From positions 1 to 56,445 of the forward strand of contig JAFXTE010000015.1 in assembly GCA_017525245.1 (NCBI GenBank): a DNA stretch of 56,445 nt, given 5' to 3'. Made by a program: the position numbers and the translations under genes. A model generated the notes under the pieces. It worked only from the letters and a program-made list of their open reading frames with translations, was not told where the DNA came from and did not search any database. Below, piece after piece: positions 1-52,708 of the stretch. The first letter of the stretch is position 1, and each line of letters starts with the position of its first letter. Origin of the DNA: Bacteroidales bacterium (lineage in GTDB: Bacteria > Bacteroidota > Bacteroidia > Bacteroidales > WCHB1-69).

Positions 1-2686
1 CATCGTCAAATTCGGTTCCAAACAATTTTTTATATAATTCCTGAAGCTTTGGGAAATTATATCCATAACCATAGGATGATGGAATTTTACACAAATCAAT
101 AGAAGCTTGCATTGTACAATAAGAAATCTTAGTGTCCAAAATATCTCTCATGTCAAGGCGAACTAATTCAGCACCAACAATCTTTTTGTCAAATTCGACA
201 TTGTGTCCTACAATAAACGTTGCTTTGTTGAAATCCTTCAAAAAAATATCTAAAACCTTTTTAATAGAAACACCTTCTTCTTTTGCTTTTTGAGTTGTAA
301 TCCCATGAATGTTAGAAGATGCAATCGGTATGGAAAAATCTTCCGGTTTAATAATATAATTGCCGGTGCTTATCCTTTTACGATTTTGATCAGTTAGAAT
401 CCATGCTAACTGCACTAAACGTGGCCAATTCTCAACATCTGAACTCGGTGCATTGTTGTTTTTAGGTATTCCTGTGGTTTCTGTATCAAAAAACAAATAA
501 CATTCACGATGAGATAATAATTTTTGGGCATTGCTTCGAATCTCTGAATATAATTGTTTGGGAAGATCTTCATCGTATTTATCAGAATCTACAAAAGATA
601 AAAAATTATCATCATGAATCATAGACAACTGTTCTTCAACATCTTCATATGTGCCCACAAACCTACCACAAGCAATCAAACTAGCAATATTAAAATGGGA
701 CATATCACTATTTGATTTTGTAAAATAATCCAATGCTTTAGAATAATCTCGATTAACTCCATCGCCTAAAATATACTTTAGCGCTAATGAATTATAAGAA
801 TCCGAAGTAGCACATTTCTCCAACCATTCTATGGAATCATCCTTCACTTCAACAGATTCGTTTAAAAAGCTGCCAATAAATTCAGCATAGCATTTACAAA
901 TTTCAACCAATTTATAAGCTAAATTTGACGCCTCTTTCTCTAATATGTATTCGTTGCCAAAGTAACCGGTGTGGCAGCGGAAGATGGAGCAGCTTGTTAT
1001 ATAATAAGAATGAATCTTAACTCTTCCACAATAATGAAGAATAAGATTGTGAATGTTGTTGACACCTATTTCCAAAGGCTCATGAGTTGGAGTATTCCGA
1101 AATAAGAGAGACAGGGACTCATTTCTTTGTTCTTTTGTCACATAAGGATAAACGAAAGAGTTTCTATATTTATCTATGTATTTAGTGTTTCCGAATGCAT
1201 CCTTTTCATAACATAAAAACTCATAGCTATTTCCATTATGATATAAAGAAGGGGGGAGAACCAAATGTGTTTTCCATCCAAGTTCTAACCTCCAGAAAAA
1301 TCTTTTATAATGAAAATTAGGGGAGTATGTTTTAGATTCAAATTCGGAATCTAAATCATCACATTTAAAAATTATATGAAAACCACGACCGCTTCCGCTT
1401 CTAATTACCCAAGGATAATCTTTAGGTAAAGATAGATACGTGAGAAAATCTTCAACTAATCTGTCTCTATTGATACAGAAATCGACATCGTCAACATCAA
1501 TGGCGCGGTATTTATTCCAACCTAACACTAATCCAATGCCGCTGTTTCGATACCAGTCTTCTGAAAGAATAAACTCTTTAGTTTGCTGCTCGTTGTAAAA
1601 ATCGTCTATTGTATATCCCCATGTAGCATCTACAGACTTGAAAGAATTGCATCTATAATTACCCTTTATCTTAGTTATGTTCATTCCAAAAATATTGTAT
1701 AGAATAGACATGACTTTAAGTTGCGTTTCATTTCTACGAAACACATCATCAGCGCTGATTCTTTTATTTTCATTTGATACTATATAAGGAATAGAATCTG
1801 AATCAGAAAGATGTGTATAGAGGAAAGTATCAGGATCGACGTTTCCCCGAAATTCTCTTATCGAGCGACATCCGACGAAAGAACGTTTATCAATTTCAAC
1901 GGAGGTACCTTTAATCACTATTATATAGAGTGATTCGCATCCACTAAAAGCACCTTCATGTATTTTTTTTACCTTTTCAGGAATAATTATTCTTGAGAGG
2001 TTGCTACAGCCATAAAACGTGTAATCTTTTATAGCTTCAATGTCACGAGGTAGCCGTATTTCTTTCAAATTAGCACAATTGCTAAAGGCCCAACCTTCAA
2101 TTGATTTAACACTATTGGGTAAAAAGACAGTGTTTACTGTCGTACAATTTGAGAAAGCAGCCTCACCTATTTTAACAATATTACTATCAATTACAACATC
2201 ATCTAACACTTTGTCGGAGTAGTACTTTATAAGAATGTCTTTGTCTTTGCTATACAAAGAGCCGTCTATAGAAGTGTAGTAGGGGTTCTTATCCACTTCA
2301 AAATAAATATTGTTTAATCCTTTTAATAAACTATGCTCGACACAAGCCATTCGGGGAATTCTTAATCTACGCAATGAGCATAGTCCCAACGGGCGATTAT
2401 AGCTATTCTCTATATGTTCAACCGAATCAGGCATGTCTATTTGCAATAGATTTGAACAACCATCAAAAGCTGCAAAATCAACACGGTCAAACGAAGAAGG
2501 AAGGATAATCTGAGTTATATGTTTACAACCACTAAAGCCTTCGCCACATTGTTCAAACCCCTTTATCGAATCTGGAATAACAATCACTCCTTCAAGGGTG
2601 TTGTCTTTAGAGCATCCTTTTATATACTTTTTGTCATCTGATAGAATGACTCCATTGCTGATGAGCTTTTCGACTGTGTCTATCAT
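1..2686 (-). CDS. LRR - AEP primase - Sel1-like - DEDDh exonuclease fusion (partial, runs off the window)
   Basis: One uninterrupted minus-strand frame of at least 895 codons; the 3' end lies beyond base 1. Residues about 45-285 are BspA-type leucine-rich repeats (recurring AFxxCxxL units such as GFSGCKHI, AFSNCANL, TFYGCSNL). Residues about 335-500 match an archaeo-eukaryotic primase/prim-pol domain: motif I AIDVDDVD (D397, D399), motif II SGRGFH (H437), motif III LEL (E468) followed by LVLPPS and YEFL. Residues about 615-660 are Sel1-like (YILGDGVNRDYSKALDYF). From about 728 comes a DEDDh 3'-5' exonuclease: FDTETTG (D734, E736) and VGHNVEFD (D833); the final HxxxD motif would fall just outside. 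ATG at 2686 is the first in frame after a stop. It starts 71 bp after the HNH gene, same strand and A+T-rich composition, so probably the third gene of the same operon. The domains are seen; a defence role (sensing plus nucleic-acid synthesis/degradation) is inferred. Confidence 0.85.
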   Translation of the reverse strand, partial: MIDTVEKLISNGVILSDDKKYIKGCSKDNTLEGVIVIPDSIKGFEQCGEGFSGCKHITQIILPSSFDRVDFAAFDGCSNLLQIDMPDSVEHIENSYNRPLGLCSLRRLRIPRMACVEHSLLKGLNNIYFEVDKNPYYTSIDGSLYSKDKDILIKYYSDKVLDDVVIDSNIVKIGEAAFSNCTTVNTVFLPNSVKSIEGWAFSNCANLKEIRLPRDIEAIKDYTFYGCSNLSRIIIPEKVKKIHEGAFSGCESLYIIVIKGTSVEIDKRSFVGCRSIREFRGNVDPDTFLYTHLSDSDSIPYIVSNENKRISADDVFRRNETQLKVMSILYNIFGMNITKIKGNYRCNSFKSVDATWGYTIDDFYNEQQTKEFILSEDWYRNSGIGLVLGWNKYRAIDVDDVDFCINRDRLVEDFLTYLSLPKDYPWVIRSGSGRGFHIIFKCDDLDSEFESKTYSPNFHYKRFFWRLELGWKTHLVLPPSLYHNGNSYEFLCYEKDAFGNTKYIDKYRNSFVYPYVTKEQRNESLSLLFRNTPTHEPLEIGVNNIHNLILHYCGRVKIHSYYITSCSIFRCHTGYFGNEYILEKEASNLAYKLVEICKCYAEFIGSFLNESVEVKDDSIEWLEKCATSDSYNSLALKYILGDGVNRDYSKALDYFTKSNSDMSHFNIASLIACGRFVGTYEDVEEQLSMIHDDNFLSFVDSDKYDEDLPKQLYSEIRSNAQKLLSHRECYLFFDTETTGIPKNNNAPSSDVENWPRLVQLAWILTDQNRKRISTGNYIIKPEDFSIPIASSNIHGITTQKAKEEGVSIKKVLDIFLKDFNKATFIVGHNVEFDKKIVGAELVRLDMRDILDTKISYCTMQASIDLCKIPSSYGYGYNFPKLQELYKKLFGTEFDD

Positions 2687-2757
2687 ATTGATTTTGGGCA
2701 ATAAAAAGAACGGATTATTTGCAAGAGGATATTATACCCTCATGAATCAGAATGATT

Positions 2758-3609
2758 TTAACTGTTTCTATAAAACCAATGGTACATCATAAACGTACGC
2801 CAATAGTTTTCTCTCTTAAACTTATTAAAGATTTCATTATCTTGATCGGCCATATCATTATCCAAATATAGCACCTGTCTGAGTTTTTCCATTCTCTGAT
2901 TTTCATCATTCACACAATTCTCCAAATCTCTGTAAGGAATGTCTGCAAAAAGATACCACAACCTGCGAATGTATTTCAGATTTCGGCAATTCAGATTCGC
3001 AGTTCGTATCATTTTGCGGTAATCCTCGGCATGAGCACACGATTCCTTAATCTGTATCGTCCCATTCTCCATATAGACGATGTCATTTTCCACTCCTTCA
3101 ATATAAAACATCGGGAAAACAAAACGATTACCTCTTTTGGAATTACAGCATTGGGATGCAGGTCCCCTATCAGGGAATGTTCCGTCGCACGAAACGGTGA
3201 GATTCTCAAACGACACAGTGTGTGGTCGGGGAGGTAAAGTTGGATCCTGCACGCCTGTAAAATCGCGTGTACGTACCACCTCGCCCTCTGTCAAGGGATA
3301 TACATTTAAATTTACATAACTGTTGAATTCCTTTGTTGTGCTCTTCTGAGGAATAACGTGTTCTAATGTCACCATGGAGTCATGCATTCCTAGATCCCTC
3401 ATACAATAGCAACAGTAATTATCCTGATTCGCCAAAGCCAACCGCAGCATCCTTCCCTTTGCACCTGATGAGCGAAACGAACCGTCGTAATCTACATTTT
3501 GATAATGGAAGTGCCCATCATCTTCATTCACCCGACATTCGGCATTTAAGTACTCATCTGTGATTGTATGGCCTTCCTGAAGATGCGTTTTCTTATTGAT
3601 GAATTTCAT
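2758..3609 (-). CDS. ptuB: PtuB-like HNH endonuclease of a Septu-type anti-phage system
   Basis: A 283-residue protein with an HNH/McrA-type core. A zinc-type CxxC (C66, C69) and LEH (E83, H84) with IPQKS follow, and a second Cys region contains CCNSKRGN (C154, C155, K158) before an FVFP segment. This order is that of the TIGR02646/PtuB family, the nuclease partner of PtuA in Septu systems and in retron Ec78. Start chosen at 3609 (MKFINKK), 17 bp inside the end of the ATPase gene; a start at 3639 would add ten residues. The tight overlap with the ATPase gene is the usual ptuA-ptuB layout and implies translational coupling. Expected role: cleavage of nucleic acid (phage DNA or host tRNA, depending on the family member) when released by the ATPase. 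The middle (LTEGEVVRTRDFTG) is longer than a minimal HNH and may be specific to this branch. Confidence 0.8.
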   Translation of the reverse strand: MKFINKKTHLQEGHTITDEYLNAECRVNEDDGHFHYQNVDYDGSFRSSGAKGRMLRLALANQDNYCCYCMRDLGMHDSMVTLEHVIPQKSTTKEFNSYVNLNVYPLTEGEVVRTRDFTGVQDPTLPPRPHTVSFENLTVSCDGTFPDRGPASQCCNSKRGNRFVFPMFYIEGVENDIVYMENGTIQIKESCAHAEDYRKMIRTANLNCRNLKYIRRLWYLFADIPYRDLENCVNDENQRMEKLRQVLYLDNDMADQDNEIFNKFKRENYWRTFMMYHWFYRNS

Positions 3610-5044
3610 TTCCCATCTCCTTTCTTCTCTTTGCCACAATCTTTGTTAATCGTTCCTCATTGCCTTTTAATTTTGTCAGCAGCAATGATCTGACGTTTTG
3701 CGCCTGCTTTTTTAGATTATTCATCTCAAAATAGACAAGATTGTTTAGCAAATCGTCAATTTCCACATTGCTGGCATCAACTCCCATCACATCTTCCACA
3801 CCCGAATTATAGTCAAGACCGTAAATATCGTTCACCACCTTGGGACATTTGTCACCGAATTCCATTTTAAGAATCTGGTTGTCCCCTTTCCCTGTCGGCA
3901 AATTGGTGAGTACCATTGGCGAATGAGTTGAGACAATGAACTGCACCTTCGGGAATACCTTTTGAAAAACATTCAGCACATCTTTCTCCAACTCAGGATG
4001 CAAATGAAGGTCTATTTCATCAATCACTACCAAGCCCTCAGGTTCACGATTACCATTTAGAATATAGGAGCGGTAAGCAATATCAAACACAATAGAATAC
4101 AATCGGCGGTAACCTGCAGGCAAGTCTTGCAATCGCGAAAAGCTGCCGTCGTTAAAATATACAGTCAACTGAAATCCAGTTTCCGTTTGTCCTACGCCAA
4201 AAAAGTCTATGTCGTGGGATTGGTTTTTAATCCCCGGCAACAATGCGGCAAAAGCCATGATAAAACTTTCCACATAACCTAATTCCTCTGAAGGCTCTGC
4301 AGTCACTTTTTTGATTCTTTCCTCTTCCTCGATAATCTGTTGATATTCCACATTGCTTTTGAGTTGTTCTGCATCAAATTTATCTTCCAACTCCTTCTTT
4401 GTCGATGCCGCTCTCAACATGGGAGTGAAATAGGGTTGCATTCTGTTTAAACAATTGCAAAATCGAGTTTCCCAAATGGAGGTGCATGCCGTTTCTTCAT
4501 CCCATTGATAGTAGCCAAAATTGCGAGGCATCACTCCATTATTTACAATATCCAACGCATTCTTCATGGTTTTTACATCCTTGTGTGGATATGAATCCGA
4601 ATAGTAGGCAAGTAAAGGAAGGGGAGCATCACTCTCTTTCCACTCATTCATAAACTTGTTGAACGCATCTTTATAATACCGTTGGTAGAGGGCCGCATTG
4701 GTTTGATTACGCCGAAACAATTGCCACGAAAGTTGAGTACCGTTATATTCCGCATTCGCTTTGATACTAGCATCTAATACCTGTTCTCTTTTTTCGGTGT
4801 CAAATCTATAGTCACTTTCTTTGAATCCCCTAATATTCAGAGTACTATTTCCTTGCGAAAGAAAGTCTTTACCCAACGAGCGACTGTTGGAAAAAATAAA
4901 ACTCATAGCCTTATGAATGGCGTGAATAAGCGTGGTTTTACCCGCCCCATTGCGCCCAATAATCACATTCACCCCAGGAGTAAAGCTGCATTTAAATGAC
5001 TCGAATCCCCTGAAGTTTTTTATTTCTATGTCCTTGATTTTCAT
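3593..5044 (-). CDS. ptuA: PtuA-like AAA/ABC-type ATPase of a Septu-type anti-phage system
   Basis: A 483-residue SMC/OLD-like ATPase. Walker A is GRNGAGKTT (30-38), Walker B LVVIDEID (338-345, E343 as catalytic base) followed by the LHLHPE D-loop region, and a switch histidine sits in STHSP (372-376). A polar segment LQDLPAGYRR (about 305-314) stands where the ABC signature would be. Opening IEIKNFRGFE is typical of ATP-binding-cassette AAA proteins of defence systems. No TOPRIM domain follows, so it is not an OLD nuclease. It overlaps the HNH gene by 17 bp, which together gives the PtuAB diagnosis. A TATTTTTG -7 box lies at 5140-5147 upstream. In characterised Septu systems PtuA oligomers bind ATP and hold PtuB inactive; ATP depletion or phage triggers frees it. 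That mechanism is family knowledge, not visible here. Confidence 0.82.
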   Translation of the reverse strand: MKIKDIEIKNFRGFESFKCSFTPGVNVIIGRNGAGKTTLIHAIHKAMSFIFSNSRSLGKDFLSQGNSTLNIRGFKESDYRFDTEKREQVLDASIKANAEYNGTQLSWQLFRRNQTNAALYQRYYKDAFNKFMNEWKESDAPLPLLAYYSDSYPHKDVKTMKNALDIVNNGVMPRNFGYYQWDEETACTSIWETRFCNCLNRMQPYFTPMLRAASTKKELEDKFDAEQLKSNVEYQQIIEEEERIKKVTAEPSEELGYVESFIMAFAALLPGIKNQSHDIDFFGVGQTETGFQLTVYFNDGSFSRLQDLPAGYRRLYSIVFDIAYRSYILNGNREPEGLVVIDEIDLHLHPELEKDVLNVFQKVFPKVQFIVSTHSPMVLTNLPTGKGDNQILKMEFGDKCPKVVNDIYGLDYNSGVEDVMGVDASNVEIDDLLNNLVYFEMNNLKKQAQNVRSLLLTKLKGNEERLTKIVAKRRKEMGNEIHQ

Positions 5045-5139
5045 AAGTCAATACTTTCTTTTACATAATTCTCGATTCTTTCGCAAGCCAATTACCTTCT
5101 ATCCATAATGACTGATTGCAAACTACAGATTTGCAGCCG

Positions 5140-5147
5140 CAAAAATA
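5140..5147 (-). promoter_or_regulatory. Promoter -7 box of the Septu-like operon
   Basis: Minus-strand TATTTTTG matches the Bacteroidota TAnnTTTG box and lies about 95 bp upstream of the ATPase start. No clear -33 TTTG is seen. It is the only such box found in front of the three-gene minus-strand run, so it probably drives all three. Confidence 0.5.
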
Positions 5148-5198
5148 AAAAATAATAATATATATGGATGAATGTTGTTCGTTTTCTTACAAACATTA

Positions 5199-5822
5199 TC
5201 ATAGCAAAAAGTTGGATAGAATTATTTTGCGAAGAGAGGGGTATTTGATGGTCCAACGGTCAGTTCGCCGGCTACCTCCTACACGCAACTGTACGAAGAC
5301 CAGATGGAAGAGCAGATGGCCAACGGCAAGTACAAATGCGTGGACGATTTGCTGAACAGCGGGGACACGTGGGAGATTTAATGCAGAACGCATAATGCAT
5401 AATTGTGGGGAATCCGGGAGGGTTCCCCATTTTTTATTAATAATAATCCGGTCTGACTGGGACAATCCTCTGCGCAGCATGTTGCTGAAATTCGATTTCG
5501 GATTCGGTTTCGTAAAAGCCTCGTGTTCATACCAAACTCCATCCACAATCAAATCTGGACACTTTCCATAGTATGGTGTTCCGCGCAAGGTGCCGAATAT
5601 TTTATCATACGCCGGGTTCTTATACGTTACATTCAGTTTTTGAGGCATCACCACCTGTTTGCCCTGCTGGGCGAAATATTTTGCACAGCTCAAGATACGG
5701 TGGAAATCCCCCGTGCTGCGGTCAATGGCATTATACACCACCACCCTCCCGCCGTTCGGGAAACTCGCCACCACTTCCGTAGTGAGGTCAACCTGATGCC
5801 TGTCAGTGTTTTTTGTCATCAA
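5199..5822 (-). CDS. CdiA-C-like tRNase domain protein, 3' part probably lost
   Basis: The first about 130 residues look like the CdiA C-terminal tRNase fold (BECR superfamily): CAKYFAQQGKQVVMPQKLN, then CPDLIVDGVWYEHEAF, then NMLRRGLSQSDRIII, the usual helix-strand-strand core with the D and E of the DLIVDG...YEHE stretch. Family members normally continue after the DRIII strand with another conserved helix and strand. Here the frame instead enters a hairpin terminator sequence and then reads the antisense of a decayed plus-strand gene (5220-5381), giving a hydrophobic nonsense tail (VHAFVLAVGHLLFHLVFV). So the native protein probably ends near 5434 and the gene is 3'-truncated. A TATCTTTG box at 5846-5853 lies about 24 bp upstream, so it may still be transcribed. 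No immunity gene is recognisable next to it. Confidence 0.5.
   Translation of the reverse strand: MMTKNTDRHQVDLTTEVVASFPNGGRVVVYNAIDRSTGDFHRILSCAKYFAQQGKQVVMPQKLNVTYKNPAYDKIFGTLRGTPYYGKCPDLIVDGVWYEHEAFTKPNPKSNFSNMLRRGLSQSDRIIINKKWGTLPDSPQLCIMRSALNLPRVPAVQQIVHAFVLAVGHLLFHLVFVQLRVGGSRRTDRWTIKYPSLRKIILSNFLL
5220..5381 (+). pseudogene. 3' remnant of an unidentified gene
   Basis: Plus-strand frame open from a TAG at 5217 to TAA at 5379-5381, ending VDDLLNSGDTWEI. The tail (QLYEDQMEEQMANGKYKC) has real-protein character: acidic, amphipathic and G+C richer than the flanks. It has no start codon or upstream region and is followed directly by a hairpin terminator. I do not recognise the family. It converges on the truncated CdiA-C-like gene, so the spot looks like an old recombination junction. 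Confidence 0.45.
5407..5436 (+). terminator. Rho-independent terminator after the gene remnant
   Basis: GGGGAA (5407-5412) pairs with TTCCCC (5423-5428) around a ten-base loop and is followed by ATTTTTTATT. It points in the plus direction and lies 26 bp after the stop of the remnant. Confidence 0.65.
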
Positions 5823-6136
5823 CGGTTCTCTTTTTTATGAATCGGCAAAGATATAAAATTATTTAACATGCTGATAATCAGCAATTTATTAACAAATAAT
5901 TGTAAAAAAAATGGTGCGTTATCGCAGAAAGAAATGTTATTCACTGGTCATCGGTTACCGAAGTGCGGCAACTCGATTAAAAGTTAGTAGTCAACTGCAT
6001 CAGCGAGGGTGCCGTTTTTTATGAACATTTGTGAATAATAACTCTTCACGAAATGTTGATAACTATGTGTTTTTCCTGCCCTATTTTTTCTGATATTTGC
6101 AACATGAAAAACTCACAAGAAGAAACAATCTAATAT
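5823..6136. other. Non-coding spacer between the decayed region and dnaB
   Basis: This 314 bp stretch holds the leftward TATCTTTG box at 5846-5853 and otherwise no convincing gene. A CGGCA...TGCCG pairing with a long loop followed by TTTTTT occurs around 5963-6020 and could be a weak terminator. ATATTTGC at about 6091-6098 is an imperfect -7 box suited to dnaB. Base use is A+T rich. Confidence 0.5.
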
Positions 6137-7717
6137 ATGGAAAACGAAACGATTACCACAAACAGACCGACGCGGACTTTGTCATACAACCGCATCGAGA
6201 CCCTCCTCGGAACAACTGGCAAGCTGACTCCCCAAGCAGTGGAATTTGAAGAGGCGGTGCTGGGAGCCCTGATGATCGACGACAACGCCGTGAACGAAGT
6301 GCTGAACATCCTCAAGCCCGACATGTTCTATGTCGAGGCCAACCAACACATATTCAATGCTATCCAAAAGCTGTTCTCAGCGTCTCAACCCATTGATGTG
6401 CTGACAGTCACCAACCAGCTCAAGAAAGACAAGCTGCTGGAAGTCTCCGGTGGGGCCTCCTATATCGCCGGCCTGACCAACCGGATAAACTCTTCGGCCA
6501 ACGTGGAGTTCCACTCCCGTATCGTGATGGAGAAGTTTATCCTGAGAGAGCTCATCCGCAACTGCAACACCATCATCAACGACGCCTACGACGACGGCAA
6601 AGACGTGCTCACGATGCTTGATGAGGCCGAGACCAAGATATTCTCTATTGTGGAGAGCAACCTCAAGCGCGACAGCAAGGAGTTGGGCGACGTGGTGAGT
6701 ATGGCGTTGAACGAGCTGTCGGAGATCCGGGAGTCGCAGGAAGAGCTGCAAGGCGTGCCCAGCGGCATCCGTGCCATCGACGAGAAGACCGGCGGCTGGC
6801 AGAAGTCCGACCTCGTGATCCTCGCCGCCCGTCCCGGTATGGGTAAGACCTCCTTCGTGCTCTCCATCGCCCGCAACGCCGCCATCGACTTCGACATGCC
6901 GATAGCCTTCTTCTCGCTGGAAATGTCTGCCAGCCAGCTGGTTCACAGACTCTTCTCCATCGAGTCGGGCATCCCTTCCGACCACATCTCCAAAGGCAAC
7001 CTCTCCGATGTGGAATGGTCGAAGCTGTGGGAGAATGTCGGCCATCTGCAAAGCTCGAACCTGATTATCGACGACACCCCTGCCCTGTCCGTCTTCGACC
7101 TGCGTGCCAAATGCCGCCGTCTGAAGCACAAATACAACATCCAGATGATCATCGTGGACTACCTGCAACTGATGCAGGCGGGCAACGACAACTCCAAGCA
7201 CGGAGGCAACCGCGAGCAGGAGATCAGCTACATCTCTCGTTCGCTCAAGGCTTTAGCCAAAGAACTGAACATCCCCGTCATCGCCCTGTCGCAGTTGAGC
7301 CGCGCCGTGGAGACCCGTGGCGGCTCCAAACGCCCGATGCTCTCCGACTTGCGTGAATCCGGCTCCATCGAGCAAGATGCCGACATGGTGCTCTTCATCT
7401 ACCGTCCCGAATACTACCATCTGGACACCTTCGAGGACAACACCCCCGCCGACGGCATGGCCGAGATCATGTTCGAGAAGAACCGTCACGGCAGCACCGG
7501 CAACGTGAAAGTCCGCTTCCAGAGCCAGTTCACGAAGTTCTGCGATGTCAGCGAAGGTTCCTTCGGCCCCGAGAGCAACTACATGTCTCCCTCGGCAGGC
7601 ATCACCCCAAACGAGAATTTCGGCTACTACGACAGTGCGGCCAACAACGACGCCGACAGCGGCAGTAGTTTTGACGATCCCATGCAGCAGGGGTATGAAA
7701 ATGAGACACCGTTTTGA
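6137..7717 (+). CDS. dnaB: Replicative DNA helicase DnaB
   Basis: A 526-residue hexameric replicative helicase that unwinds DNA ahead of the replisome and recruits primase. The N-terminal DnaB domain (about 35-135: EEAVLGALMIDDNAV) and linker precede a RecA-like ATPase: Walker A ARPGMGKTS (231-239), SLEMSASQL (motif 1a), Walker B MIIVDYLQL (337-345), a Gln-Leu-Ser-Arg region (ALSQLSRAVE) and the SGSIEQDAD arginine-finger segment. The last 40 or so residues are a low-complexity Ser/Asn/Asp tail. No intein. The start agrees with the position of the family N-terminal domain. It stands alone, followed by a degenerate tandem repeat rather than the usual neighbours, so nothing about regulation can be said beyond the weak upstream box. 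Confidence 0.97.
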   Translation: MENETITTNRPTRTLSYNRIETLLGTTGKLTPQAVEFEEAVLGALMIDDNAVNEVLNILKPDMFYVEANQHIFNAIQKLFSASQPIDVLTVTNQLKKDKLLEVSGGASYIAGLTNRINSSANVEFHSRIVMEKFILRELIRNCNTIINDAYDDGKDVLTMLDEAETKIFSIVESNLKRDSKELGDVVSMALNELSEIRESQEELQGVPSGIRAIDEKTGGWQKSDLVILAARPGMGKTSFVLSIARNAAIDFDMPIAFFSLEMSASQLVHRLFSIESGIPSDHISKGNLSDVEWSKLWENVGHLQSSNLIIDDTPALSVFDLRAKCRRLKHKYNIQMIIVDYLQLMQAGNDNSKHGGNREQEISYISRSLKALAKELNIPVIALSQLSRAVETRGGSKRPMLSDLRESGSIEQDADMVLFIYRPEYYHLDTFEDNTPADGMAEIMFEKNRHGSTGNVKVRFQSQFTKFCDVSEGSFGPESNYMSPSAGITPNENFGYYDSAANNDADSGSSFDDPMQQGYENETPF

Positions 7718-7889
7718 CGGTGAGACGATGAGACGATGAGACGATGAGACGATGAGGCGATGAAACGATGAGACGATGAAAAACGATGAGACGATGAAAA
7801 ACGATGAGGCGATGAAACGATGAGACGATGAAAAACGATGAGACGATGAAAAACGATGAGACGATGAAAAACGACGAAACGATGAGACG
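7718..7889. repeat. Degenerate tandem repeat of GATGAGAC / GATGAAAAAC units
   Basis: About 170 bp made of 8-11 bp words (GATGAGAC, GATGAAAC, GATGAAAAAC) between dnaB and the methylase gene. Units are too short and too contiguous for CRISPR. The same word, inverted (CATCGTTTCATCGCCTCATCG), recurs at about 13254-13300, 14470-14530 and 15533-15613. The last units run directly into the methylase start codon, so the repeat forms its leader and supplies several in-frame ATGs. Confidence 0.9.
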
Positions 7890-8429
7890 ATGAAGAAACT
7901 ATCAATGGATGAACTCGGCAGGGTGACCCCCGAAGAGTTCAAGAAACAGGAGAAAGCGCCTATTGTGTTGGTGCTGGACAATATCCGCAGTATGCACAAC
8001 GTGGGTTCCGCGTTCCGCACGTGCGACGCCTTCAACATCGAAAAACTCTACCTGTGCGGGATCACCGCCACGCCGCCGCAGAAAGAGATCAGCAAGACCG
8101 CCCTCGGCGCCACCGAAAGCGTGGAATGGGAATACGTGGAGCACGTTGCCAAACTGGCAAACCGTTTGAAATCAGAAGATTACTCGATCCTGCTGGTGGA
8201 GCAGACCGACAGTTCCATCATGCTTCAGGACTTCGACTTTGCCCAATACGGGAAGATTGCCTTGTTCGTGGGCAATGAGGTGTTCGGCATCTCCGACGAG
8301 CTGTTGCCCTTATGTGACGCCGCCATCGAGATCCCGCAGTTCGGCACCAAACACTCGCTGAATGTGGCGGTGGCCACCGGGATTTCGCTATGGGAAGCGG
8401 TAAAACAATGCATAATTCATAATTCATAA
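7890..8429 (+). CDS. TrmH/SpoU-family RNA 2'-O-methyltransferase
   Basis: A 179-residue SPOUT methylase with the three knot motifs: motif 1 NIRSMHNVGSAFRTCDAF (31-48), motif 2 IALFVGNEVFGIS (about 130-142) and motif 3 SLNVAVATGISLWE near the C-terminus. It transfers a methyl group from SAM to a ribose 2'-OH in tRNA or rRNA; which nucleotide cannot be told from sequence. It lacks the N-terminal substrate-binding domain of RlmB, so it is closer to compact TrmL/TrmH-like proteins. The start codon lies at the end of the GATGAGAC repeat, so the exact start is uncertain; a later Met (MDELGR, 7905) is an alternative. The stop overlaps an ATTCATAATGCAT word repeat before hpt. Confidence 0.9.
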   Translation: MKKLSMDELGRVTPEEFKKQEKAPIVLVLDNIRSMHNVGSAFRTCDAFNIEKLYLCGITATPPQKEISKTALGATESVEWEYVEHVAKLANRLKSEDYSILLVEQTDSSIMLQDFDFAQYGKIALFVGNEVFGISDELLPLCDAAIEIPQFGTKHSLNVAVATGISLWEAVKQCIIHNS

Positions 8430-11589: not shown

Positions 11590-11646
11590 ATAATTCATAA
11601 TTCATAATGCATAATTCATAATTCTACATTCTTAATTCTTAATTCA
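11590..11646. repeat. CATAATTCATAATTC word repeat
   Basis: ATAATTCATAATTCATAATG, then TAATTCATAATTCTACATTC and TTAATTCTTAATTC, between the lipoprotein and barrel genes. Confidence 0.85.
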
Positions 11647-12570
11647 AAATCCATACCCCACCCCAATCGCTCCAAACCCTTTGAAACCGGCACCGAGCTC
11701 AAAGCTGCCGAACCAATGTTCCCCACCCGCCCGGATGCCGAAAAGTGTCACATGCGGCGAGAAAAACAACGTTCGGGGATTCTTGTCGTTCGTGCTCGAA
11801 TTGGTATTTATATCGAAATAGGTTGTGCTGTTGTCGGCGTAGCTCAAGTCGTAGTTCGTCACCCTGCCGATAAATTTGGTCAGCCCAAACGACAGCTCTG
11901 AGTATAGTGTGACGTGCGGTCGGTTAAACCACGAGAACCTCAATTCCGGCAAGAAGCTGAAGGCGTGGTATCGGCGGTCGCAGATGCCTGGCACGGTCTG
12001 AGTCAAGTCCTTGATTTCCAGATCCACATAATGGACGTATTGGGTGTGCAGACCAATCCACAGCCATTTCGTGGCGCGGAAGTGGTAGGCGAAGGCGAAC
12101 ACCGGCGTAGTGTGGAACCATGGGCTGAGCAGGCCTTTGTTTAGGTCGAGATCCAAATCAAAACCGACGGGTATGACAAACACAAAATACCGGTCAAATA
12201 GCGCGATGCCGGTCGCGTCGCACAGCTCCAGCTTGAACTCGTGACGGAAATATGGCATCGGCGCCCGTTCGCGTTTCTCTCGCGGTTCACGATGACGCTT
12301 CTCCTTTTCCGACTTGGATTCTATATCGAAAGATCCATCGTAAAACATCCCTGATAAAGAGTCAGCATCCTCACGAACGTCCATTTGTTGCTGATTTTGA
12401 CGAAGATAGAGCGTATCGTGTACCCAGGTGGTGTCGCAGGAGAAAAGCGTGTCATGCTCCGTCACCGTCTCATAAATGTAGAGCGTGTCAGGTTTTTGCG
12501 CACACAATTTGCACATCCCTACCGACATCAGCAGGAACACAAAAGCCACCCTATATTCTACATTCTTCAT
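11644..12570 (-). CDS. Outer-membrane beta-barrel protein with HDTL-type N-terminal repeats
   Basis: A 308-residue protein with a signal peptide (about 1-24, ending MCKLCAQ). A periplasmic stretch follows with repeated D-T-hydrophobic-aromatic words (PDTLYIYE, HDTLFSCDTTWVHDTLYL), then a charged KEKRHREPREKRER linker. The C-terminal 190 residues have alternating aromatic strands ending in VGYGF, as in OmpA/PorT-like barrels. It begins 3 bp after the stop of the one-TM protein gene, so the two are coupled. The neighbour has the same kind of HDTV words. I infer an outer-membrane sensor or structural protein controlled with the sigma factor upstream; no enzymatic motif is visible. Confidence 0.65.
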   Translation of the reverse strand: MKNVEYRVAFVFLLMSVGMCKLCAQKPDTLYIYETVTEHDTLFSCDTTWVHDTLYLRQNQQQMDVREDADSLSGMFYDGSFDIESKSEKEKRHREPREKRERAPMPYFRHEFKLELCDATGIALFDRYFVFVIPVGFDLDLDLNKGLLSPWFHTTPVFAFAYHFRATKWLWIGLHTQYVHYVDLEIKDLTQTVPGICDRRYHAFSFLPELRFSWFNRPHVTLYSELSFGLTKFIGRVTNYDLSYADNSTTYFDINTNSSTNDKNPRTLFFSPHVTLFGIRAGGEHWFGSFELGAGFKGFGAIGVGYGF

Positions 12571-14462: not shown

Positions 14463-14551
14463 TCACACATTCATCGTCTTTCATCGCCTCATCGTTTCAT
14501 CGCCTCATCGTTTCAACGCTTCATCGCTAATAAGGGCATCGAAATAAACAC

Positions 14552-15518: not shown

Positions 15519-15532
15519 CTGCCGATTCATAC

Positions 15533-15613
15533 ATCGTATCATCGTTTCATCGCTTCATCGTTTCATCGCTTCATCGTTTCATCGCCTCATCGTATCATCG
15601 TATCATCGTTTCA
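15533..15613. repeat. CATCGTTTCATCGCTTCATCG word repeat
   Basis: About 80 bp of (CATCGTTT / CATCGCTT / CATCGCCT) units running into the end of the sigma-factor gene, so its last codons (AMKR) are repeat derived. Inverse of the 7718-7889 words. Confidence 0.88.
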
Positions 15614-16115
15614 TCGCCACCGCCTTCAGCCGCTGCTGCAGCTCCGCCCGCGCGCGGGAAAGCAGAACCTTCGAGTTTGCGACGGAGATGCCGAGCGTTT
15701 CAGCGATTTTCGAGTGGGAGTAGTGCTCCACCGCGTAGAGGTTGAAGACCGTGCGCTGCTTCACAGGCAGCTTCCCGATGGCCTCCAACAGCTCCTCTTG
15801 CGAGAAATCCTTCTGCGGAACGGCTTGTTCTTCAGCTTCTTCCACCACCTCCTGACCGTGCAGGTTCTCGTCCCACTCCACCATCTCCGGACAGTCGCGC
15901 AGATGCATCAGCGCCTGGTTGACGGCGATCTTCTTCAACCATGCCTCAAAGCTGCCGAAAGCGCGGAAGGTGCTGGCTTTCTCCATCGCGGCGAGGAACG
16001 CGTCCTGCGCCAAGTCCTCAGCCAAATCCCAGTCGGCCACATACCGATAGCACGCGCCCACCATCTTCCCGATGTGCCGCCGATATTGCTCCGCCCAGAA
16101 TGCTTCTTTCTTCAT
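15603..16115 (-). CDS. ECF-type RNA polymerase sigma factor
   Basis: A 170-residue sigma-70 family protein with only regions 2 and 4. Region 2 (about 10-75) includes WDLAEDLAQDAFLAAM; region 4 (about 110-160) has ELLEAIGKLPVKQRTVFNLYAVEHYSHSKIAETLGISVANSKVLLSRARAEL (given here only by its ends EAIGKLP and LLSRARAEL), the usual helix-turn-helix. It directs polymerase to a small stress or envelope regulon. A TATTTTTG box at 16142-16149 lies 26 bp upstream. The downstream genes are lipoproteins, a one-TM protein and an outer-membrane barrel, so the cassette probably regulates or responds to the envelope. No classical anti-sigma gene is directly adjacent. Confidence 0.92.
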   Translation of the reverse strand: MKKEAFWAEQYRRHIGKMVGACYRYVADWDLAEDLAQDAFLAAMEKASTFRAFGSFEAWLKKIAVNQALMHLRDCPEMVEWDENLHGQEVVEEAEEQAVPQKDFSQEELLEAIGKLPVKQRTVFNLYAVEHYSHSKIAETLGISVANSKVLLSRARAELQQRLKAVAMKR

Positions 16116-16165: not shown

Positions 16166-16318
16166 TTTTGGCTGTTGGCTGTTAGCTGTTGGCTAAAACT
16201 TAGACGTAAACTTAAACTTAGACGTAGACTAATAACTCTTCACGGTACCTTACCGCACATTCAACATTCAGCATTCAGCATTCAACATTCAACATTCAAC
16301 ATTCAGCATTCAGCATTG
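16166..16318. repeat. Three word repeats between the sigma factor and the YfcC-like gene
   Basis: Successive blocks: GGCTGTTGGCTGTTAGCTG (16166-16196), AGACGTAAACTTAAACTTAG (16199-16232) and CATTCAGCATTCAACATTC (16258-16318). The first recurs at 21510-21540 and 28103-28152; the last at 23818-23866, 34755-34785 and, inverted, 50270-50312. Confidence 0.88.
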
Positions 16319-23759: not shown

Positions 23760-23817
23760 CAAAATCCTTTAATATGAATGTTACGCTAATTCTAAAAATT
23801 GACTATTGTCTTAAACC

Positions 23818-23866
23818 ATTCAGCATTCAGCATTCAGCATTCAACATTCAACATTCAGCATTCTCA
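23818..23866. repeat. CATTCAGCATTCAACATTC word repeat
   Basis: Seven CATTCA(G/A)-type units ending at the stop codon region of the porin gene. Confidence 0.88.
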
Positions 23867-30671: not shown

Positions 30672-30712
30672 ACTTCGACCGCCACTACCCAACAAAACCG
30701 AGGGAATTCTTC

Positions 30713-30775
30713 ATTCTACACTCTTCATTCTACATTCTACATTATGCATTATGCATTATGAATTATGAATTAATA
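30713..30775. repeat. CATTCTACATT / GCATTATGCATTATG word repeat
   Basis: TCTACACTCTTCATTCTAC, ATTATGCATTATGCATTATG, AATTATGAATTA just after the VWA-type gene stop. Confidence 0.85.
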
Positions 30776-45478: not shown

Positions 45479-45580
45479 TTAGGCTGAAGACTTTGGACTG
45501 AAGACTTTGGACTGAAGACTTTGGACTTTGGACTTAAGACTTTTATGTCTTCTTTTATCTCAAGTCCACAGTCCTCAGTC
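45479..45580. repeat. GGACTGAAGACTTTGG word repeat
   Basis: Three ACTGAAGACTTTGGACT-type units followed by TTTATCTCAAGTCCACAGTCC near lpdA 3' end. It fills the whole spacer between a barrel gene and lpdA. Confidence 0.88.
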
Positions 45581-50246: not shown

Positions 50247-50653
50247 GGAACCAACGGCGTCCCGCAGTTGAAATGCTGAATTATGAATGCTGAATTATGA
50301 ATGCTGAATGCTGAATATTTTGGACTTCTACGGGACAGCACGCTGCTCTGGTCGCACATCCGCCCTCCTTTTACTCTTTCCCAACCGCGTCAGCGGTTGC
50401 ATATCTTTAGCCGGTGGCGATGACGGGGTCCCACACAACCCCAGAGGGGTTGCATAGACGATCAAATGGTTATTGGTTATGGGTTATTGGTTATTGAGGG
50501 GGATGTTCGGGACGTTAGTGGGGAATGGTGTTGGGCGCGACGGCTCGCACAAAATAAAAAAAAGTTGATGCATAAGCCCTGAAGTTTTGTTCCGGCAAGA
50601 GTGAGGGATACATAATTTTTGTAGTTTTGCCGCATTATGTAATATTTGCGGAA
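50247..50653. other. Repeat-filled spacer after trxB
   Basis: No gene is supported here. In order: GAATTATGAATGCTGAATTATG-type words (50269-50312); a paired-hairpin element with AACCGCGTCAGCGGTT (50390 region) and CAACCCCAGAGGGGTTG (about 50438-50454) around ATCTTTAGCCGGTGGCGATG; GGTTATTGGTTATGGGTTAT words (50464-50497); GCGCGACGGCTCGCACAAAAT (about 50536-50556), whose near-copy lies before sufB (53615 region); and the TAGTTTTG box of the WG gene. Confidence 0.75.
50622..50629 (+). promoter_or_regulatory. Promoter -7 box of the WG-repeat gene
   Basis: TAGTTTTG, 24 bp before the ATG at 50654. Its position rules out a TTG start at 50627. Confidence 0.55.
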
Positions 50654-52708
50654 ATGGATAATCGTTTTAAGAATTTAAAACCTGTAAAAGGTGACAACGA
50701 TAAATATGGCTATATTGATTCATACCACAAAAATACTTTAAATTGGTGTTTAAGAGAGAAGAAAATTGATTTTGAATATCCTAGTTTTAATTTAAAGCCT
50801 ATATATGACGAAGCGTATGACTTTCTAAATGAATACGCAATTGTGAAATTAAATGGCAAATGGGGGGTTATCGATAAGAATGGCTATTTTGTAGTAAATG
50901 CACAATACGAAAAAATAAATGTTTACAGGAAAGAAGGAAACGATGTATACTATAGGGTAATGCTTGAAGGCAAATGGGGGGTCGTTAATGAAGAAGGTGA
51001 ATATATAGTCGAATGCAAATACGATACAATAAGCAATAAATTTTATGGCAATGTTGCGACAATAAGTATAAGTTCTAAAATCGGATTCATTAATAAAAAT
51101 CTACAAGTTATTATTGAGCCAAAGTTTGATTCTGTTAAAAATATCAACATTGAACTATTGATTGTAACTATTGGAAACAACGTTGGACTATTTAATGGAT
51201 CGAAAGAGCATTTTGTTTTTGATCCTCAGTTCGATTTCATAGATCAGTACCACTATTGGCCGATGATGAGAGTTAAAAAACACAATAAATGGGGATTTGT
51301 AAGCTCAAATGGCACAATAATAGATCCTCAATACGAAGAAGCAGATAATTTTCGTTTGGACATAGCCCAAGTTAAGATAAACAATAGGTGGGGATTAATA
51401 AACAACGAGGGAAAGTTTGTGCTTAACCCTCAACCTCATAAAATGAAAATAATTATTTGTTATGACAATAAAAAAAGCTACAAATGTCATGAATGTGGCA
51501 GATATTGTTTTCATGATTGTCGTGGTTTTGCACGGATAGAAATTGGAGAAAAATCTTGTTATTATCTGAAAAGTACTGGTCGAATATTGGATGATATAAA
51601 TATTGAGGATTTTAGTTCGATAGTTCGTTTCACAGATAATGGTTTAATAGGTTATATTGATAGCAACATGAATATCTTATTTGAGCCTCAATTTGAGGAA
51701 GCTGACAGATATTGTGGTGGATATACAAAAGTAAAGATAAAAGGTAAGTTTGGCCTAATAAACAAACACTTTAGCTTGAGAAGAGACCATAAGTTTGTCA
51801 TTGAGCCGATTTATGATGACATACTAATTGATACATATCATGATTTTTTGATTAGAGTTAGATTAGATGACAAAATTGGATTCTATAACTTAATAGATAA
51901 AATCGTTATTTCTCCTCAATATGATGAATTAGAGGAGTTTAATTTTGATGGTGTTGCAAAAATGAAGATGGGAAATAACTGGGGATACATTAATTCCGAT
52001 GGTCGTGTTGTTGTTAAACCGGAATATGGTGCTGATGAAGTTTTTTTTACTGGTTGCCGTTTTATTGCGATAAAAAAGGGTGCAAAATGGGGTGTGGTGG
52101 ACAGCAGAACAGGTATCACTGTCATTAATCCTATTTTAGATGAAATTGGGAATTATCAGATGGGGATGATCAAATTGAGAATAGGAAAGAAATGGGGATT
52201 TATAGATGATGAATGCAATGTCACTTTACCATGCTTCGATTATATAGCAGAGGATTCATTTAGAGAAATGGCTATCAGAGTAATGAATGATGGCAAGTGG
52301 GGGGCTGTTTATAGGTGGGGCAAGATACTCGTTGAACCACGATTCGACGAGATTGGCTCTTTTCACCATGGTCTAGCTAAAGTTAAAACAGGCGATAAAT
52401 GGGGTTTTATAAATAAAAAAGGCGAAGTGCAAATTGAAATTCAATTTTATACTGTTTCGGATTTTGATAAGGAAAGAGAAGGGCTGGCAATGGTTAATCT
52501 AGGCGGGGAAGATTATTACATAAATTTACTTGGGAAACGGGTGAAAGACCCTAAAATCTACCCCTTACATAGATACTCTTCATATCATGGTTATTATGGT
52601 TCTGCTCAAGAATCGGCTCGCGAAGGATGGGATATGATTGCAGGAGATGCTGGTGTAGATGGTGATTATGACGTTGACTCCTTGTGTGAATTTTTAGGTA
52701 TTGACTAA
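50654..52708 (+). CDS. WG-repeat protein with a central Cys cluster
   Basis: A 684-residue protein built of about 14 WG (KWG-type) repeats, each with the pattern GKWGVIDKNGYFV then an acidic P-x-Y/F-D turn, e.g. NGKWGVIDKNG, EGKWGVVNEEG, HNKWGFVSSNG, GDKWGFINKKG. At about residues 276-290 the repeats are broken by CHECGRYCFHDC, a likely metal-binding knuckle. No signal peptide, so probably cytoplasmic. The gene is much richer in A+T than its neighbours and has an A/T-ending codon bias, which suggests recent acquisition. WG repeats are found in some bacterial conflict and surface proteins, but the function is unknown. Start 50654 follows a TAGTTTTG box. Confidence 0.85.
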   Translation: MDNRFKNLKPVKGDNDKYGYIDSYHKNTLNWCLREKKIDFEYPSFNLKPIYDEAYDFLNEYAIVKLNGKWGVIDKNGYFVVNAQYEKINVYRKEGNDVYYRVMLEGKWGVVNEEGEYIVECKYDTISNKFYGNVATISISSKIGFINKNLQVIIEPKFDSVKNINIELLIVTIGNNVGLFNGSKEHFVFDPQFDFIDQYHYWPMMRVKKHNKWGFVSSNGTIIDPQYEEADNFRLDIAQVKINNRWGLINNEGKFVLNPQPHKMKIIICYDNKKSYKCHECGRYCFHDCRGFARIEIGEKSCYYLKSTGRILDDINIEDFSSIVRFTDNGLIGYIDSNMNILFEPQFEEADRYCGGYTKVKIKGKFGLINKHFSLRRDHKFVIEPIYDDILIDTYHDFLIRVRLDDKIGFYNLIDKIVISPQYDELEEFNFDGVAKMKMGNNWGYINSDGRVVVKPEYGADEVFFTGCRFIAIKKGAKWGVVDSRTGITVINPILDEIGNYQMGMIKLRIGKKWGFIDDECNVTLPCFDYIAEDSFREMAIRVMNDGKWGAVYRWGKILVEPRFDEIGSFHHGLAKVKTGDKWGFINKKGEVQIEIQFYTVSDFDKEREGLAMVNLGGEDYYINLLGKRVKDPKIYPLHRYSSYHGYYGSAQESAREGWDMIAGDAGVDGDYDVDSLCEFLGID

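What the first reader, a model, noticed from the sequence alone, without database searches (positions are those of the whole stretch)
1..5147. Three-gene minus-strand operon: Septu-like PtuAB plus an LRR-primase-exonuclease protein
The PtuA-like ATPase and PtuB-like HNH genes overlap by 17 bp; only 71 bp later, on the same strand and with the same A+T-rich composition, begins a very large gene with primase and exonuclease domains. One promoter box is seen for all three. Septu is normally two genes (or PtuAB with a retron). A third component of this type is not one I know, so this may be an extended Septu system in which nucleic-acid synthesis or trimming is added to HNH cleavage.
Basis: partly seen in the sequence, partly recalled or inferred. 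Interest (0 to 1): 0.88.

Follow-up and report, generated by a model that had tools for sequence, protein, structure and literature searches.

The report
Septu genes beside a primase-exonuclease gene
A gut-type bacterium carries a divergent pair of Septu anti-phage genes next to a very unusual, incompletely sequenced gene that joins a repeat-rich front end to a DNA-making and a DNA-trimming domain; both lie at a variable spot where some close relatives keep other anti-phage genes, but nothing yet shows that the three genes work as one system.

Summary
The three minus-strand ORFs are real. ptuA (5044-3593) and ptuB (3609-2758) are a divergent Septu pair (PADLOC E 6.8e-60 and 7e-17) with a 17-nt overlap. 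The third ORF (2686 to the contig end) joins BspA-type LRRs, a PrimPol domain with its catalytic residues kept, a weak Sel1 repeat and a DEDDh-type exonuclease. The contig start cuts it, so its last catalytic motif and everything beyond are unseen. Composition differs: GC3 0.43 for ptuAB, 0.28 for the third gene (z 6.3). The trio was not seen again: no protein of this architecture turned up, and 0 of 15 other ptuAB loci had a PrimPol, exonuclease or LRR ORF in the DNA held. New: the locus lies in a variable interval beside dnaB; there, or downstream of korB, some relatives carry HEC-01, GmrSD-type, AbiD or toxin genes, and 7 of 40 genomes of the genus repeat the korB 3' tail. Best reading: a complete two-gene Septu plus a separate, probably defensive nucleic-acid enzyme in one island. 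A retron-like three-gene system stays possible.

The parts
3593..5044 (-). ptuA: Septu ABC-type ATPase, 483 aa; Walker A GRNGAGKTT, Walker B VVIDEID, STHSP loop visible; no N-terminal extension of the retron type
   Evidence: PADLOC PtuA E 6.8e-60; NF041760 matched from position 51 of 524, 158.7 bits against a cut-off of 500; best solved chains are retron Ec78 PtuA (9vkz) and, further down, PtuA 8ee4
2758..3609 (-). ptuB: HNH nuclease, 283 aa from ATG 3609 (the TTG at 3639 is an alternative)
   Evidence: PADLOC PtuB E 7e-17; H84, N136, C141, C155, N156 invariant in a 5-sequence alignment
2..2686 (-). third gene, incomplete at its 3' end (contig end): LRR - PrimPol - Sel1 - DEDDh-type exonuclease, at least 895 aa
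1859..2224 (-). BspA-type LRR_5 best stretch of the third gene (residues 160-281, counted from TTG 2701)
   Evidence: Pfam PF13306 E 3.2e-41, two stretches
1214..1558 (-). Prim-Pol domain (residues 382-496); D402, D404, H442 and E473 kept
   Evidence: PF09250 E 3.3e-6, 28.1 bits against a cut-off of 22.8; alignments with 21 rows and 4 relatives
713..802 (-). weak Sel1 repeat (residues 634-663)
   Evidence: PF08238 E 0.037, below cut-off
41..493 (-). 3'-5' exonuclease domain (RNase_T/DEDDh); first motifs DTETTG and GHNVEFD seen, last motif beyond the contig end
   Evidence: PF00929 E 2e-10; PADLOC DEDDh 1.6e-19; similar to phage DNA polymerase exonuclease subunits, best E among the 20 rows listed 4e-30
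5140..5147 (-). TAnnTTTG promoter-like box upstream of ptuA
5274..5407 (+). copy of the 3' tail of korB (89-98% identical over 99-134 bp to G009, G013, G020); lies on the dnaB side of ptuA
5405..5430 (+). terminator-like stem after the korB tail copy; its sequence differs from the stems after korB in relatives
5424..5822 (-). 5' part of an ORF with a sub-threshold CdiA_C match; its G009 counterpart has a different C-terminal end (170 aa), so it is probably truncated at this junction

Best explanation
ptuA and ptuB are a complete two-gene Septu system of a divergent Bacteroidales lineage, lying with a third AT-rich gene in a variable, partly defence-filled interval beside dnaB. PtuAB most likely works as described for other PtuAB: an ATPase-HNH complex that on infection cleaves nucleic acid (tRNA-Tyr in retron-Eco7 and Septu EcB88; nicked DNA reported for Septu of E. 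coli ATCC 25922) and stops phage growth (inferred from the family). The third gene most likely encodes a separate or at most auxiliary anti-mobile-element enzyme: the repeats bind a partner or trigger, and the PrimPol and 3'-5' exonuclease domains act on primers or 3' ends of invading DNA (domains shown, action inferred). The genes may share a transcript, but the system does not need three genes.
For: PtuAB identity. The nearest PtuAB, in P. vulgatus and B. pyogenes, have no such gene in the DNA held. 0 of 15 other ptuAB loci have PrimPol, exonuclease or LRR ORFs at E 1e-4; 13 of these 15 hold at least 2.5 kb beyond ptuB, and the same profiles find all three domains in the window's own gene. 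GC3 step at the ptuB/third-gene border. Defence-type genes at the same interval in two of the three closest relatives: HEC-01 in G013 and a GmrSD-type gene in G020. Two stand-alone PrimPol relatives sit among defence-type genes: MkoA/TmtA-like and DinG-like helicases; type I R subunit and IetS-like subtilase. PtuAB mechanism: PMC11555353 and PMC13096335 (passages).
Against: No terminator or second promoter was seen between ptuB and the third gene, so co-transcription is plausible. The third closest relative, G009, has no recognised defence gene at the interval (a PAD_porph protein and, by eye, a Sel1-repeat protein). Two other PrimPol relatives (L035, L036) lie among genes that look like mobile-element genes (by eye). 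The left end of the island is not visible. Two of the 15 ptuAB loci show under 0.5 kb beyond ptuB (L033, L052).
Confidence: 0.7

Rival explanations
1. A true three-gene system: the PrimPol-exonuclease takes the place that reverse transcriptase and msDNA have in retron-Eco7. It makes and trims a guard nucleic acid that holds PtuAB inactive; phage interference with it frees the PtuAB toxin.
For: Same strand, 71-nt gap, one visible promoter box; catalytic residues of the PrimPol kept; in retron-Eco7 RT alone did not neutralise PtuAB, msr-msd and RT together did (PMC11555353, passages), so a nucleic-acid maker beside PtuAB has a precedent.
Against: Seen once only; GC3 step; no credible RNA family at 1-6200; PtuA lacks the retron-type N-terminal extension; Septu EcB88 acts with ptuA and ptuB only (PMC13096335, passages).
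Confidence: 0.12
2. The third gene is a replication or transfer gene of a mobile element, not a defence gene.
For: Helicase-length PrimPol relatives (open frames of 699-813 aa) lie, in the two loci read, beside an excisionase-like HTH gene and in L035 also an integrase-like gene (named by eye); the exonuclease resembles phage DNA polymerase exonuclease subunits.
Against: No integrase or helicase-like replication gene is visible beside it except the host dnaB; the closest PrimPol relatives are stand-alone genes among defence-type genes; LRR and Sel1 repeats are not usual in replication proteins (recalled).
Confidence: 0.13
3. The third ORF is an assembly or sequencing artefact: a chimera of unrelated genes at a contig end.
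For: It lies at the end of a contig of a fragmented genome (111 contigs, 6.46% contamination); no relative has the architecture.
Against: GC and GC3 stay even from LRR (0.36/0.31) through PrimPol (0.34/0.29) and middle (0.33/0.27) to exonuclease (0.33/0.26); one 900-codon frame without a stop.
Confidence: 0.05

Closest known systems
Septu (PtuAB)
   Same: ABC-type ATPase overlapping an HNH nuclease gene; motifs kept
   Different: Divergent: PtuB 30% and PtuA 34-38% identical to the nearest relatives, B. pyogenes and P. vulgatus; followed by an unrelated large gene
Retron-Eco7/Ec78 (type I-A: RT, msr-msd, PtuA, PtuB)
   Same: PtuAB next to a nucleic-acid polymerase gene
   Different: PrimPol instead of RT; no credible Rfam match at 1-6200; PtuA lacks the N-terminal extension
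Stand-alone Bacteroidota PrimPol (Hymenobacter swuensis pHsw1 WP_044000439.1, and G191)
   Same: PrimPol domain, 33-39% identity, same active-site residues
   Different: No LRR or exonuclease profile hit; neighbours are helicases or type I R / subtilase genes, not ptuAB
DEDDh exonucleases (phage DNA polymerase exonuclease subunits; G531 199-aa protein)
   Same: Exonuclease domain, 39% identity to Parabacteroides phage PDS1 and 49% to G531
   Different: G531's is free-standing, beside an AAA_15/AAA_21 ATPase gene, with no PtuA or PtuB profile hit in the locus

Membership tests
Septu | PtuA: ABC/AAA_15-type ATPase with Walker A and B | tested here: met
   below NCBIfam's retron-Ec78 equivalog cut-off (158.7 of 500 bits)
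Septu | PtuB: HNH nuclease encoded next to ptuA | tested here: met
   below NCBIfam's retron-Ec78 equivalog cut-off (38.2 of 150 bits), so divergent
Septu | Protects against phage | not testable with these tools
   needs plaque assays
Extended (three-gene) Septu | Third gene recurs next to ptuAB | tested here: not met
   0 of 15 other ptuAB loci; no full-length homologue
Extended (three-gene) Septu | Single transcript of all three genes | tested here: inconclusive
   no terminator or box in 2687-2757; no RNA data
Retron I-A | Reverse transcriptase gene | tested here: not met
   none among the four ORFs scanned at 2-5822; sequence beyond the contig end is unseen
Retron I-A | msr-msd RNA | tested here: not met
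   only a sub-threshold match to an unrelated family at 1-6200; new retron RNAs could be missed
PrimPol (PF09250) | D-x-D, SGSGxGxH and third acidic residue | tested here: met
   (motif roles recalled)
DEDDh exonuclease | All four acidic residues and the H of the last motif | tested here: inconclusive
   first motifs present, last motif lies beyond the contig end

The most novel reading that the evidence does not exclude
A primase-polymerase with a built-in 3'-5' exonuclease replaces the retron reverse transcriptase as the nucleic-acid-based guard of a PtuAB toxin, with LRR/Sel1 repeats as the scaffold or phage sensor: the first defence system in which a PrimPol makes the guard molecule.
Probability: 0.08. 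Interest if true: 0.9.

Novelty: new variant of a known kind. Interest (0 to 1): 0.5.

Why it matters
The Septu pair itself is a divergent member of a known kind. The third gene's domain order (LRR, PrimPol, Sel1, DEDDh-type exonuclease) was found nowhere else in the collections searched, and the two closest relatives of its PrimPol domain lie among defence-type genes. That makes PrimPol a testable candidate anti-phage enzyme. The variable interval beside korB and dnaB gives a place to look for more such genes in this genus.

Tried and rejected
Structure prediction of the PrimPol-to-exonuclease part (residues 320-900, single sequence) gave mean pLDDT 30.5 and pTM 0.19 and was not used; no fold search was run. 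Rfam gave one sub-threshold match, taken as chance. Solved-structure searches for ptuB, PrimPol and exonuclease gave nothing usable. The LRR part matched relatives in 4 other genomes of 40, over query residues 157-278 only, i.e. as generic LRR. The G014, G036 and G009 hits look like Sel1-repeat proteins (by eye). A sharp attachment core in the korB tails was considered: the left ends of the copies differ, so I do not claim site-specific integration.

Literature: in open-licence PubMed Central full text only; one search was badly worded (it matched 'septum') and is worthless. Of the papers listed I read passages of PMC11555353 and PMC13096335 and the abstract and outline of PMC12887533; of the others I saw only titles and starts of abstracts. 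None of those listings showed a PrimPol partner of Septu. My claim that the architecture is undescribed rests on these alone.

Limits: first-look limits in the genome search (4 candidates scored per genome; 21 of 38 for G000) and the pattern-based scans can miss distant relatives. Of the 2 genome-contig scans, one used the third protein alone (close relatives only) and one the PtuA pair (2 loci). One search examined 37 loci, of which L038 and L039 are the same place; 15 distinct loci had both ptuA and ptuB, the rest were dropped from that count; L031, L032, L033 and L040 also served to build the ptu profiles. The proteins of relatives scanned (10 and 7) were chosen by eye, so the share of defence genes among them is not an estimate; cargo of G024, G026 and G031 was not scanned. 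Downstream of ptuB the 15 loci hold 0.13 to 9.2 kb.
Full report
What is there. The window is one whole contig (C103, 56,445 bp) of a 3.68-Mb, 111-contig genome. It belongs to the order of Bacteroides pyogenes: G329, 'same order' but another family label, carries a contig of the same length (77,284 bp) as the B. pyogenes record found with the same protein. On the minus strand lie ptuA (5044-3593), ptuB (3609-2758; overlap 17 nt) and, after 71 nt, an ORF from ATG 2686 (or TTG 2701) that is open to the contig's end.

ptuA and ptuB. PADLOC models give PtuA E 6.8e-60 and PtuB E 7e-17. NCBIfam's retron-Ec78 PtuA model matches only from position 51, so the retron-type N-terminal extension is absent. 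Walker motifs, H-loop and HNH residues are present. The pair is divergent: the nearest relatives are 30-38% identical; short stretches of viral PtuA-like ATPases reach 50%. PtuB was found in 4 of 104 genomes of the family and 2 of 295 of the order at E 1e-10 or better, the own genome counted in each.

The third gene. Pfam: LRR_5 E 3.2e-41, Prim-Pol E 3.3e-6 (above the cut-off), Sel1 0.037 (below it), RNase_T exonuclease 2e-10. In an alignment with 21 relatives, two of them the same G191 protein and two pairs overlapping loci, the PrimPol keeps D-x-D, SGSGxGxH and the third acidic residue; in the five-sequence alignment these columns are invariant. The exonuclease resembles phage DNA polymerase exonuclease subunits (177 phage records; best E among the 20 rows listed 4e-30) and a 199-aa protein of G531 (49%). 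That relative goes on for 24 residues beyond the aligned point where the window ends, with the last histidine motif, so the window's gene may lack only about that much, but activity cannot be judged.

Does the trio recur? For the PrimPol-plus-middle part: 4 of 100 related genomes matched at E 0.001 or better, the own one plus three Sel1-type hits; 15 of 395 genomes of the phylum at 1e-5, own included, the others over the PrimPol domain only; 15 pattern matches but 0 relatives in genome contigs, 1 and 0 in IMG/VR, 0 in phages; one plasmid, PrimPol only. A PrimPol alignment found 3 viral contigs, none with LRR or exonuclease in the same ORF. From the other side, 15 distinct loci with adjacent ptuA and ptuB had no PrimPol, exonuclease or LRR ORF at E 1e-4 or better; 13 of the 15 hold at least 2.5 kb beyond ptuB. 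The same profiles detect the window's gene. P. vulgatus ATCC 8482 has ptuAB followed by a gene on the other strand; B. pyogenes has ptuAB, ptuB with an in-frame stop, followed by ORFs with a P-loop-like motif (by eye). In two of three ptuAB loci of the family (L031, L032; not L033) the neighbours look like type I restriction and BREX genes (named by eye, not tested).

Composition. GC3 is 0.43 for both ptuA and ptuB and 0.28 for the third gene (z 6.3); seven chromosomal genes of the window sampled have 0.65-0.86. The segment is foreign in composition, but in two parts.

The place. In G009, G013 and G020, whose DnaB is 98-100% identical, the interval upstream of dnaB is closed on the far side by a 343-aa gene (TPP_enzyme_C domain in G013), which I call korB (2-oxoacid:ferredoxin oxidoreductase beta; name recalled). 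The four other relatives fetched (G002, G026, G031, G036) do not have it next to dnaB in the stretch read. Window 5274-5407 is a copy of its 3' end, 89-98% identical over 99-134 bp, followed by a terminator-like stem whose letters differ from those in relatives. The tail matches 32 of 40 genomes of the genus, and 7 of 40 hold two or three copies on one contig (G008, G009, G013, G024, G026, G031, G039). Cargo: HEC-01A/B and a C3a193/PsyrT-like helicase between the two tails of G013; a GmrSD-type gene between korB and dnaB of G020; AbiD between korB and a tail copy in G008, and YafQ toxin and an HTH gene near the copies in G039, in both of which dnaB lies on another contig. G009's interval shows no recognised defence gene. 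I chose by eye which proteins to scan. The window's trio is the equivalent cargo; korB itself was not found in the own assembly (21 of 38 candidates scored) and I infer that it lies beyond the contig end. An ORF with a sub-threshold CdiA_C match runs into this junction and differs in its end from its 170-aa counterpart in G009.

Interpretation. The place makes it likely that the third gene is also a defence gene (guilt by association, not shown). The two stand-alone PrimPol relatives agree: one lies between a MkoA/TmtA-like helicase and a DinG-like helicase, the other beside a type I R subunit and an IetS-like subtilase. Against this, two helicase-length PrimPol relatives lie among genes that look like mobile-element genes (by eye); the surroundings of the remaining ones were not read. 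That the third gene is part of Septu is not supported. The analogy to retron-Eco7, where RT plus msr-msd neutralise PtuAB (PMC11555353, passages), is the most interesting remaining reading and is testable. PtuAB targets differ between systems: tRNA-Tyr (PMC11555353; PMC13096335, passages), or, as cited in the former, nicked DNA for Septu of E. coli ATCC 25922, and no tRNA for retron-Eco4. The abstract of PMC12887533, on retron-Eco8, describes an RT-msDNA-OLD nuclease complex, a similar partnership of a polymerase product and an ATPase-nuclease.

Noticed in passing
window 5265-5430; L112, L113, L114, L139, L140, L141, L142, L143: The 3' side of korB is a variable insertion place in this genus: the korB 3' tail is repeated on one contig in 7 of 40 genomes, with different cargo, some of it defence genes; copies start at different points, so no fixed attachment core is seen.
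   Followed up: partly
window 7716-7893, 11590-11655, 14470-14528, 15532-15618, 16257-16317, 23817-23863, 30706-30772, 45484-45543, 50272-50316 and others: Many spacers between ORFs (by eye) consist of short tandem repeats with units of about 7-8 bases (for example CATTCAG, ATTCTAC, CATCGTTT); 30 overlapping rows in one scan; unexplained.
   Followed up: no
window 50627-52708: A 693-aa protein of WG repeats with GC 0.336 and GC3 0.284, as AT-rich as the third gene, in a region otherwise near 50% GC.
   Followed up: no
L030 7792-9654 (G531:C27): A DEDDh-type exonuclease gene directly followed by an AAA_15/AAA_21 ATPase gene on the same strand, possibly a defence pair of its own.
   Followed up: no
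L031, L032: ptuAB of two family relatives sit in the middle of what look like large restriction or BREX-type clusters (named by eye).
   Followed up: no
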